Assembly (NCBI GenBank): GCA_001919995.1
Contig: MNIY01000013.1
Coordinates: 1-19,645, forward strand
Direction of reading: 5' to 3'
Source: Ktedonobacter sp. 13_1_20CM_4_53_11
GTDB taxonomy: Bacteria > Chloroflexota > Ktedonobacteria > Ktedonobacterales > Ktedonobacteraceae
DNA length: 19,645 nucleotides
Under the pieces are notes generated by a model. It was not told where the DNA came from. It was given only the letters and a program-made list of their open reading frames with translations, and made no database searches. Position 1 is the stretch's first letter. Each line of letters begins with the position of its first letter. The position numbers and the translations under genes are program-made. This document shows, piece after piece, positions 9,905 through 11,217 of this stretch.

Positions 9905-9994
9905 CGATCTACCGACCGGCCGGAAGTCGCGCCAGCGCAGGGCATCGGCGCAAACCCTGCCTCCCTGCTTCTCCCTGTCGTGAAACGTGCCTTA

Positions 9995-10013
9995 GAGCCT
10001 GTAAAAAATGTAA
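9995..10013 (+). repeat. left terminal inverted repeat of the cassette
   Basis: GAGCCTGTAAAAAATGTAA. It matches the complement of 11156-11174 at 17 of 19 positions. The bases after it (CAGGCC) also pair back with GCCTG inside the repeat, giving a small local hairpin. Confidence 0.75.
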
Positions 10014-10049
10014 CAGGCCCTCGAGTACTATTCGTAGAAAAGATGCTCG

Positions 10050-10937
10050 TTATCGTAACTTTGCCAGCGCTCTGACAGGAAAGGTCCCTACCCCTTTGAA
10101 CTTTGGCGGAAGAGCACTAAAGGTAAATCCTTCGTCTGGAAGTTGGCCCAGATTGCACAGATGCTCCACGATCAGGACTTCGGCTCCAAGCAGTAGGGAA
10201 TGGACGGGTCTCGGGCCGCCCCTGGTATCATCGATGTTCACGGAGTCGATGCCGACCAGTTTGACGCCACACTCTACAAGATAGTGAGCGGCATCTTCAG
10301 TCAGGTGTGGGTGGTGTTCGAAGTACTGGTCAGTATTCCAGTAGGCGTCCCAGCCGGTATGCACCAATACAGCTCGCCCTCGCAGTTCCTTGCCGCGGAA
10401 GAAGTCAGCGTTCATTGCAAATGTCTCTTTGTGGTCAGCACGAATAACGATGCCATCCAGGTCTGCAAGCCTTTCCACACCTACTTCCGAGAGGTCCTTG
10501 CCGCGCTCGTAGCGATGAAATGGGCAATCGAGATAGGTGCCGGTGTTGGCCACCATTTCGATCTTCCCAATCTGGAACTCGGTCCCCTCCGCGTAGTGTT
10601 TCCTTGATTCCTCCCGACTTACATAATCGCAGATGATGGGGGCTGGTAATCCTTTATAGGTCACTAATCCATGCTCAATGGTATGGCTCAAGTCGACGAG
10701 TTTCTCGCTTCCCGCTCTGGCAGCGATGGGAACACGTTTATGCTTCTCCGCCAGAATAGTCTTCTTGTGAATATGCACCTTCCCAACCATCAGCAGCCGC
10801 AGATCGCTGACCAGGTAATCAGCGAGCGCCTGGTCGCTGATATCATCGCCCGCAATATCCAGACGAAAGCCCTGTCCTTGTATCCCTCCACCGTTGGTAA
10901 ACTCGATTTCAAAGTCAAATTGTACTCTCTTCTCCAT
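10050..10937 (-). CDS. cyclase family protein (kynurenine formamidase-like) with fused ~70-residue N-terminal domain
   Basis: A 295-residue protein. Residues 1-68 (FDFEIEFTNGGGIQGQGFRLDI...LRLLMVGKVHI...EKHKR) resemble small stand-alone proteins I recall beside cyclase genes. Residues 78-295 (LVDLSHTIEHGLVTYKGLPAP onward) are a metal-dependent cyclase/amidohydrolase of the kynurenine formamidase superfamily. The family motif HxGTHxDxPxH reads N131-TGT-Y135-L-D137-CPF-H141 here, so two of the usual histidine ligands are Asn and Tyr. GIDSVNIDD and HSLLLG are typical C-terminal blocks. ATG at 10937 is chosen because AAAGG precedes it by 5-7 nt. Frame openness further upstream comes from antisense transposase sequence. 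The gene lies inside IS5-type inverted repeats, so it is likely mobile cargo. Its substrate is unknown. Confidence 0.85.
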   Translation of the reverse strand: MEKRVQFDFEIEFTNGGGIQGQGFRLDIAGDDISDQALADYLVSDLRLLMVGKVHIHKKTILAEKHKRVPIAARAGSEKLVDLSHTIEHGLVTYKGLPAPIICDYVSREESRKHYAEGTEFQIGKIEMVANTGTYLDCPFHRYERGKDLSEVGVERLADLDGIVIRADHKETFAMNADFFRGKELRGRAVLVHTGWDAYWNTDQYFEHHPHLTEDAAHYLVECGVKLVGIDSVNIDDTRGGPRPVHSLLLGAEVLIVEHLCNLGQLPDEGFTFSALPPKFKGVGTFPVRALAKLR

Positions 10938-10952
10938 GGTGACCTTTCTTTC

Positions 10953-11159
10953 AAACGCACCTTTGGTTGGCTCAATCGTTATCGTCGCCTCGCCAAAGAT
11001 GATGAGCGGTCCTTCGAGAGCAGCGAAGCCATGATCCACATTGCGATGATCCGCTTGATGCTTGCACGGCTCGCTCGGAAACGCCAAGCTAAACAGCAGC
11101 GTCAGCAACGAGTGCAACCATACCAAGCTTTCAAGGTTGATAATGCCCTGGCAGCTTAA
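10953..11159 (+). pseudogene. C-terminal fragment of IS5-family transposase
   Basis: Sixty-eight codons reading KRTFGWLNRYRRLAKDDE, then a SSEAMIHIAMIRLMLARL helix and a basic tail, ending with TAA at 11157-11159. This is the diagnostic C-terminal block of IS5/IS427-like DDE transposases, including the conserved Arg-Thr-Phe-x-Trp-Leu after the catalytic Glu position (here replaced by Lys). The preceding ~190 residues with the catalytic aspartates are missing. The homology stops within about 15 bp of the cyclase start codon, so the junction between IS and cargo is sharp. Confidence 0.8.
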
Positions 11160-11174
11160 ATTGTTTACAGGCTC
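11156..11174 (-). repeat. right terminal inverted repeat of the cassette
   Basis: Read inward on the minus strand: GAGCCTGTAAACAATTTAA. It overlaps the stop codon of the transposase remnant (11157-11159), as is usual for compact IS5-family elements. Confidence 0.75.
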
Positions 11175-11217
11175 TTACATTCATCTGAACACTAATAGTG
11201 TGGAGACATACTCAAGT

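What the first reader, a model, noticed from the sequence alone, without database searches (positions are those of the whole stretch)
9992..11177. Cyclase gene packaged between IS5-type inverted repeats: a mobile-insertion-cassette-like unit
Two 19-bp ends (17/19 identical, GAGCCTGTAAA tips) in inverted orientation are each bordered by TTA. Inside, a complete cyclase gene on the minus strand replaces all but the last ~68 codons of an IS5-family transposase. Sequence shows the ends, the TTA pair and the truncated transposase directly. IS1031-group elements are known to have GAGCCTG tips and three-base TNA duplications; cassettes that keep IS ends but carry cargo instead of transposase are known for IS231-type elements. 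That this IS5-type unit moves as cargo vehicle is inference.
Basis: partly seen in the sequence, partly recalled or inferred. Interest (0 to 1): 0.8.

Follow-up and report, generated by a model that had tools for sequence, protein, structure and literature searches.

The report
Cyclase gene inside gutted IS5 transposon
A bacterium of the Ktedonobacter group appears to carry a complete metabolic gene packed between the two ends of a small transposon whose own transposase has been almost wholly deleted, a cargo cassette of a known type that could move only with help from a related element.

Summary
Two 19-bp ends (9995-10013, 11156-11174; 17/19) with TTA outside each enclose a complete 295-aa PF04199 cyclase and the last 67 codons of an IS5-family transposase. 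The ends exceed chance (0 of 200 shuffles with two). In close relative G047 cyclase homology stops at window 10955, where transposase begins. The junction is no isolated artefact: P0003 and P0243, not credited to the window, contain it. P0249 is best read as a longer junction of the same lineage. Two other Ktedonobacterial loci hold genes and IS5 transposase pieces between such ends: L191 (flanks TAA/TCA) and L134 (degenerate ends, TGA/TGA). Best reading: a mobile-insertion-cassette-like derivative of an IS5 element that took cargo and lost its transposase by deletion. Not shown: movement, an empty site, or a second copy of this unit; its left end is seen only here, and TTA/TTA is weak because the family favours TNA. 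New variant of a known kind.

The parts
9992..9994 (.). TTA, left copy of the possible 3-bp target duplication
   Evidence: Read directly. TNA is the IS1031-group target (PMC12016507), so identity of the two copies is roughly a 1-in-4 coincidence for two independent TNA insertions (my estimate).
9995..10013 (+). Left terminal inverted repeat (IRL), tip GAGCCTGTAAA
   Evidence: Seen together with the cyclase only in this window.
10014..10049 (.). 36 bp between IRL and the cyclase stop codon, of unassigned origin; with IRL it can fold as a hairpin
   Evidence: By eye no clear match to the 3' flanks of the nine cyclase relatives printed; hairpin z = -3.0.
10050..10937 (-). Complete cyclase (PF04199), 295 aa; arylformamidase-like family protein
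   Evidence: PF04199 E 1.6e-24; TIGR03035 only far below its cut-off (54.9 against 223 bits); 87% aa identity to Ktedonobacter orthologues.
10938..10955 (-). 18 bp of native cyclase leader with a likely ribosome-binding site (by eye); the native promoter region is absent
   Evidence: G047 homology ends at window 10955.
10954..10956 (.). Junction between cyclase leader and transposase; about 2 bp of shared sequence (by eye)
   Evidence: the closest cyclase matches end at 10951-10955 and transposase matches begin at 10951-10956.
10956..11159 (+). IS5-family transposase remnant, last 67 codons plus stop
   Evidence: NF033580 (IS5 family) E 2e-9, profile 223-258 of 258, below cut-off as a fragment; PF13586, just under its cut-off; residues 221-287 of P0127, 84%.
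11156..11174 (-). Right terminal inverted repeat (IRR), overlapping the transposase stop codon
   Evidence: similar placement in L123 and L081.
11175..11177 (.). TTA, right copy of the possible target duplication

Best explanation
A non-autonomous, mobile-insertion-cassette-like derivative of an IS5-family (IS1031-like ends) element of Ktedonobacteria. An ancestral element took a chromosomal cyclase gene between its left end and its transposase (inferred). Internal deletion, probably in more than one step, removed transposase codons 1-220 together with the cyclase promoter, leaving cyclase plus 18 bp of leader fused to the last 67 transposase codons (the junction is shown; the order of steps is inferred from P0249). 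Both ends remain, so a transposase supplied by an intact relative could move the unit (inferred). The cyclase ORF is intact; with its own promoter gone it may be transcribed from the co-directional genes to its right (inferred).
For: Paired ends beyond chance; IRR in its natural place after the transposase stop. An annotated ISRl2-family relative has GAGCCTGA tips, TTA on both sides and no cargo, with the left end 78 bp before the transposase. G047, 93-95% identical over most of window 880-3459, has the cyclase start in another context, and homology stops at the junction. P0003 and P0243 contain the same junction with four differences in 295 cyclase residues and two in 162 residues. P0249 has the same variable transposase tail fused, one base shifted, to cyclase-upstream DNA like that of P0246: a codon-compatible run of 24 residues (16 with P0247) against at most 8 in 300 shuffles, which were tested against P0247. 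L191 shows left end - regulator - RidA-like - luciferase-like monooxygenase - transposase - right end. L134 shows TGA - degenerate left end - collapsed transposase - amidohydrolase - degenerate right end - TGA.
Against: The left end is seen with the cyclase in the window only. No empty site, no second copy with both ends, no autonomous partner in the same genome. TTA/TTA is weak. P0249's contig is 996 bp and the cyclase itself was not seen on it. In L191 the flanks differ (TAA, TCA) and 4 of 200 shuffles of that 11-kb locus also gave two matches at 2 mismatches (the real ones have none). In L134 the cargo lies on the other side of the transposase piece. Of 16 exact TNA-GAGCCTGTAAA sites in 47 genomes, only 2 loci had a P0127-like match in the stretch fetched, and one further site is the other end of L191, so most such tips are unexplained.
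Confidence: 0.72

Rival explanations
1. Scar of two separate insertions. The left end is a solo remnant of one IS5 copy and the right end is the 3' end of another; the cyclase is chromosomal DNA left between them after deletions, and the whole has never moved as a unit.
For: L191 has two perfect tips with different TNA flanks, so two ends of separate insertions could lie near each other. TTA/TTA has roughly a 1-in-4 chance among TNA sites. The left 36 bp are unexplained. Both ends together with the cyclase is a window-only fact.
Against: Almost no chromosomal DNA besides the ORF is enclosed: 36 bp on the left, 18 bp on the right. The ends match at 17 of 19. In G047 the cyclase start lies elsewhere.
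Confidence: 0.2
2. Assembly chimera: the cyclase and an IS end were joined falsely in a metagenome assembly.
For: No whole genome is held for the window, and IS sequences are common places for misassembly (general knowledge).
Against: P0003 (source ena) and P0243 (source ncbi), with residue differences from the window, run through the same junction on the two strands.
Confidence: 0.04
3. Transporter IS in use: the truncated transposase is a chance state of this copy, and full-length cyclase-carrying copies move on their own.
For: Related elements L191 and, less completely, L235 have genes upstream of a transposase.
Against: No full-length copy with the cyclase was found; P0003 and P0243 both lack the transposase 5' part at the junction.
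Confidence: 0.04

Closest known systems
MIC231 / IS231 modular elements (IS4 family, Bacillus cereus group)
   Same: Cargo between the left terminal repeat and the transposase gene: PMC2266710 describes additional DNA with passenger genes there (passage). That MICs lack a transposase of their own is stated in PMC3281130 and, for some such structures, in PMC3129680 (passages).
   Different: Here the ends and transposase are IS5 family, the last 67 of about 287 transposase codons remain, and no movement has been shown. [quoted passage not shown]
Transporter ISs (tIS), e.g. in the IS1595 family
   Same: IS with passenger genes (PMC3129680, PMC7986276, PMC9330008; passages). The relative L191 resembles this layout.
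   Different: The window unit has no working transposase, so it is not autonomous; L191's transposase is itself split by a resolvase/recombinase gene.
IS5 family, IS1031-like elements (ISLrh; an ISRl2-family element)
   Same: GAACCTG or GAGCCTG tips, TNA target, 3-bp duplication (ISLrh: PMC12016507, passage; ISRl2-family L283); IS5 profile NF033580.
   Different: Those are about 0.86-0.93 kb with a transposase and no cargo; here 1180 bp with the cyclase. Tips vary in the family: the Nostoc relative L284 has GAGGGTG tips, also with TTA on both sides.

Membership tests
Mobile insertion cassette (MIC) | Both terminal inverted repeats of a known IS type | tested here: met
   the tips agree with IS5-family relatives.
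Mobile insertion cassette (MIC) | No functional transposase of its own | tested here: met
   67 of 287 codons remain, codons 1-220 are absent.
Mobile insertion cassette (MIC) | Complete passenger gene between the ends | tested here: met
   Cyclase ORF intact, PF04199.
Mobile insertion cassette (MIC) | Target-site duplication of the IS family | tested here: inconclusive
   TTA/TTA present, but TNA preference makes chance identity roughly 1 in 4.
Mobile insertion cassette (MIC) | Several copies or an empty site in genomes | tested here: inconclusive
   No empty site in 47 genomes; own genome not held.
Mobile insertion cassette (MIC) | Moves when a related transposase is supplied | not testable with these tools
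   Needs a bench test.
IS5 family (IS1031-like) | Transposase matches an IS5 profile | tested here: met
   Full-length relative P0127: NF033580 243 bits against cut-off 110; the remnant matches the same profile at 37 bits, below cut-off, as a fragment would.
IS5 family (IS1031-like) | Ends with GAGCCTG-type tips next to TNA | tested here: met
   agrees with L283 and ISLrh. Subgroup assignment by a tree was not made.
Transporter IS (tIS) | Intact transposase together with passenger genes | tested here: not met
   Transposase truncated in the window.
Composite transposon | Two IS copies flanking the cargo | tested here: not met
   Only one pair of such ends in the window and one stretch recognised as this transposase.

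The most novel reading that the evidence does not exclude
Ktedonobacterial IS5 elements are modular cargo carriers: they take chromosomal genes between one end and the transposase, then shed the transposase by stepwise deletion and persist as non-autonomous cassettes. The cyclase cassette would be caught in stages (native gene, P0249-type junction, window-type junction); L134 would be a second finished cassette with a collapsed transposase, an amidohydrolase and TGA on both sides; L191 and perhaps L235 would be transposase-bearing carriers of other metabolic genes.
Probability: 0.35. Interest if true: 0.68.

Novelty: new variant of a known kind. Interest (0 to 1): 0.45.

Why it matters
If right, it extends the cargo-carrying layout described for IS231/MIC231 to the IS5 family in a bacterial class where such transposases are common (18 of 47 genomes at E 1e-40), and it gives stages that can be set in a row: native gene, a longer junction, a shorter junction. 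It would also suggest one way in which single metabolic genes change place: the DNA flanks of the cyclase are shared among three Ktedonobacter loci but not with the other eight relatives compared.

Tried and rejected
Copies in the window's own genome: not possible, no genome held. Empty site: right flank and left flank searched in 47 genomes (only the best candidates per genome are scored); G047 has a 95-bp piece of the left flank and G024 30 bp, neither joined to the right flank. Plasmids: 9 records matched, cyclase region only, 60-80% identity. Viral contigs: the junction 30-mer and a 26-mer of IRL gave 0 matches; a scan with P0127 gave 6 relatives of at most 53% identity, not studied further. 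Whether L123/L235 is a complete transporter IS was not settled: no left end in its contig. L195/L236 (left end, MarR-like regulator, flavin reductase) has no good right end in its 4886-bp contig, only a 3-mismatch match. L197 was dropped as evidence: its tip follows a mutator/MULE-like transposase gene, so GAGCCTGTAAA is not exclusive to this IS5 group. L192-L194, L196, L198, L200 and L201 have tips without TNA and were not counted as ends. L127 and L210 in G034 showed no good end pair. L134 was picked out of more than twenty loci scanned for ends, which lowers its weight. For this I raised the novel-case probability from 0.30 to 0.35. No sigma-70-like promoter or intrinsic terminator was found in 9700-11700 (shuffles average 0.9 and 1.6).

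Full report
What is there. The window has two 19-bp inverted ends at 9995-10013 and 11156-11174 (17 of 19 identical) with TTA outside each. A degenerate 19-mer made from them, with up to 3 mismatches, finds these two sites and no other, against a mean of 0.01 in 200 dinucleotide shuffles; no shuffle had two. Between them lie, from left to right: 36 bp of unassigned origin, the complete cyclase on the minus strand (10050-10937, PF04199), 18 bp of its leader, and the last 67 codons of an IS5-family transposase on the plus strand (10956-11159 with stop). The remnant aligns to residues 221-287 of the 287-residue protein P0127 at 84%. The transposase stop codon overlaps or abuts the right end as in L123 and L081.

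Where the cyclase comes from. A scan of reference genomes found 400 relatives, of which the best 80 were kept; the top three are Ktedonobacter robiniae, K. racemifer and Ktedonobacter sp. SOSP1-85 at 87% protein identity. None of these 80 loci has an exact GAGCCTGTAAA tip or a match to the remnant at E 0.01, and outside the cyclase region only one short stretch of one locus (L007) matched the window's DNA at E 1e-8. Eleven relatives were looked at more closely: prfA of G047 matched none of the eleven loci; the DNA flanks of K. racemifer matched only the two other Ktedonobacter loci; of nine window proteins, only two MFS proteins and the LuxR-like protein had matches at E 1e-20, all in L007 at 31-40%. 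A DNA search of 47 genomes of the order matched 17 (at most 8 candidates per genome were scored). The closest in the cyclase, G047, is 93% identical to the window over 880-3164 and 95% over 3177-3459 and is probably a congener (inference). Its cyclase piece is 93% identical, homology stops at window 10955, and beyond it the contig runs on, after some 390 bp, to a gene that I read as prfA (the name is mine, from recall). The G047 contig begins inside the cyclase, so its 3' side could not be seen.

The junction is not peculiar to this contig. A protein search with the cyclase returned P0003 (source ena, cluster of 126 sequences on 2 contigs): 34 extra N-terminal residues agree with the antisense reading of remnant and leader in the window's own longer ORF, the start residue apart, followed by the cyclase with 4 differences in 295 residues. 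Among the 120 cyclase hits listed it was the only one with this extension, by a test for three short motifs. A search with the plus-strand ORF through the junction returned P0243 (162 aa, two differences, source ncbi, cluster of 14, contig of 4865 bp) and P0244 (listed with '-', which the tool uses for what the window itself encodes, though its longest contig is given as 5402 bp). Cluster sizes count sequences at 90% identity, not copies of the junction, and P0003 and P0243 may come from populations close to that of the window. P0245, P0246 and P0247 follow the same antisense frame and leave it exactly after the residues DLSFK, going on to TASS, as the G047 DNA does; the more distant P0248 leaves it after DLS. 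I take this as the native state.

A longer version of the junction. P0249 (115 aa, 996-bp contig, source jgi) has a transposase end 91% identical to the window's over 42% of the query ORF, with the same variable tail, but its first 35 residues are not transposase. A script asked whether one DNA could encode both this part and the frames upstream of the cyclase. With P0246 a run of 24 residues is compatible at a shift of one base, with P0247 a run of 16; 300 shuffles, tested against P0247, reached at most 8. So P0249 appears to join cyclase-upstream DNA to the transposase at about residue 209, the window to residue 221. I read this as two deletion states of one lineage. The cyclase itself was not seen on the P0249 contig, and the order of the states is inference.

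The transposon family. The full-length relative P0127 matches NCBIfam NF033580 (IS5 family, 243 bits against cut-off 110). A transposase search of 47 genomes matched 18 at E 1e-40 or better; the nearest are L123 in G029 (the query's own source) and the element in Ktedonospora formicarum (G006, L191). An annotated ISRl2-family copy on a Rhizobium plasmid, 55% identical to P0127, shows the plain form: GAGCCTGA tips, TTA on both sides, left end 78 bp before the transposase. The Nostoc plasmid relative, 57% identical, has GAGGGTG tips and also TTA on both sides, so tips vary.

L191. Here a perfect left tip is followed by an HTH/MmyB-like regulator, a RidA-like protein, a luciferase-like monooxygenase, then the transposase, split by a resolvase/recombinase gene, then a perfect right tip, 6.1 kb in all. 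The three genes are also together in G007 and, less completely, in G009; of the L191 flanks, only two short pieces of the short-chain dehydrogenase gene matched weakly in G009. They look like a captured chromosomal group (inference). Against a simple reading, the flanks are TAA and TCA, and 4 of 200 shuffles of the 11-kb locus also gave two matches at up to 2 mismatches, though the real tips have none. L235 has a zinc-binding-dehydrogenase gene and part of an MFS transporter upstream of a full transposase, but no left end in the contig.

L134. In G034 a tip with 2 mismatches in 13 stands after TGA, 53 bp before the transposase start; the transposase is collapsed (residues 1-32, then 230-269, with stops); a complete amidohydrolase gene (PF04909) follows, then a right tip with 2 mismatches, then TGA. 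The locus has two such matches against a mean of 0.06, and no shuffle of 200 had two. Relatives of the amidohydrolase in G008, G002 and G006 match at the gene only. The cargo here lies on the other side of the transposase piece, the tips are degenerate, and this locus was picked from more than twenty scanned, so I count it as support, not proof.

Mechanism. Shown: the ends, the cargo, the truncated transposase, the junction in other sequences, the cyclase start in another context in a close relative. Inferred: capture beside the left end, stepwise deletion with about 2 bp of shared sequence at the window junction, and movement in trans. The native promoter region is not retained, and no sigma-70-like promoter was found in 9700-11700 (Ktedonobacterial promoters may not fit that scan). 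The genes to the right (glyoxalase/VOC-like, SnoaL-like, DJ-1-like) run the same way, so read-through is possible. Against K. robiniae the cyclase shows 125 synonymous and 39 non-synonymous codon changes in 294 codons, but against G047 12 and 8 in 100; the first speaks for constraint on the gene in general, neither shows selection since capture.

What weakens it. The pairing of the left end with the cyclase is seen only in this window. No empty site was found in 47 genomes. TTA on both sides is a weak sign, since IS1031-group elements favour TNA (PMC12016507, passage). Exact TNA-GAGCCTGTAAA sites number 16 in 47 genomes against 2 for the reversed control; 3 of the 16 have TTA. Only 2 of these 16 loci hold a P0127-like match in the stretch fetched, and one further site is the left end of L191, so most of these tips remain unexplained. 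The same tip also follows a different transposase type in L197.

Comparison. The layout, cargo between left terminal repeat and transposase, is that described for IS231; [quoted passage not shown] Transporter ISs are described for several families (PMC3129680, PMC7986276, PMC9330008; passages). Searches naming mobile insertion cassettes together with IS5 or passenger genes listed 18 and 4 papers. Of these I read passages of seven (PMC9330008, PMC3281130, PMC2266710, PMC6542083, PMC7371123, PMC3129680, PMC7986276), besides PMC12016507 from another search, and saw no IS5-family cassette; the other listed papers I saw only in the listing. Papers outside this library were not searched. Hence: a new variant of a known kind, with mobility unproven.

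Noticed in passing
L134:1322-2594 (G034:C1): Second candidate cassette: degenerate IS5 tips with TGA on both sides, collapsed transposase, complete amidohydrolase gene.
   Followed up: partly
L191:2185-8323 (Ktedonospora formicarum, G006:C6): 6.1-kb stretch between two perfect tips holding a regulator, a RidA-like gene, a luciferase-like monooxygenase and a transposase split by a resolvase/recombinase gene; flanks TAA and TCA differ.
   Followed up: partly
L203:1900-2000 (G029:C382): Start and end of the cyclase gene joined with about 0.8 kb missing between: a deletion remnant of the same gene (by eye), no exact IS tip in the contig.
   Followed up: no
L081:1426-1520 and protein P0261: A similar non-transposase sequence precedes the transposase C-terminus in Ktedonospora and in a metagenome protein (by eye), so the recombinase insert may use one site in these transposases.
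   Followed up: no
window 9995-10027: IRL and the next bases form a local hairpin (z -3.0); no T-run follows.
   Followed up: partly
window 8253-9740: IS110-family transposase in two ORFs; the first ends at a TAG at 8643-8645 and homologous sequence seems to go on in the same frame (by eye).
   Followed up: no
window 6551-7830: Fragments of further transposases: an IS1-like start (by eye) and an IS481/IS3-type end by profile, below cut-off.
   Followed up: no
window 18681-19643: Group II intron reverse transcriptase/maturase running off the window end (TIGR04416, below cut-off as a fragment).
   Followed up: no
protein P0073: A database protein in which a PF00398 domain is fused in front of this cyclase; real fusion or assembly error unknown.
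   Followed up: no
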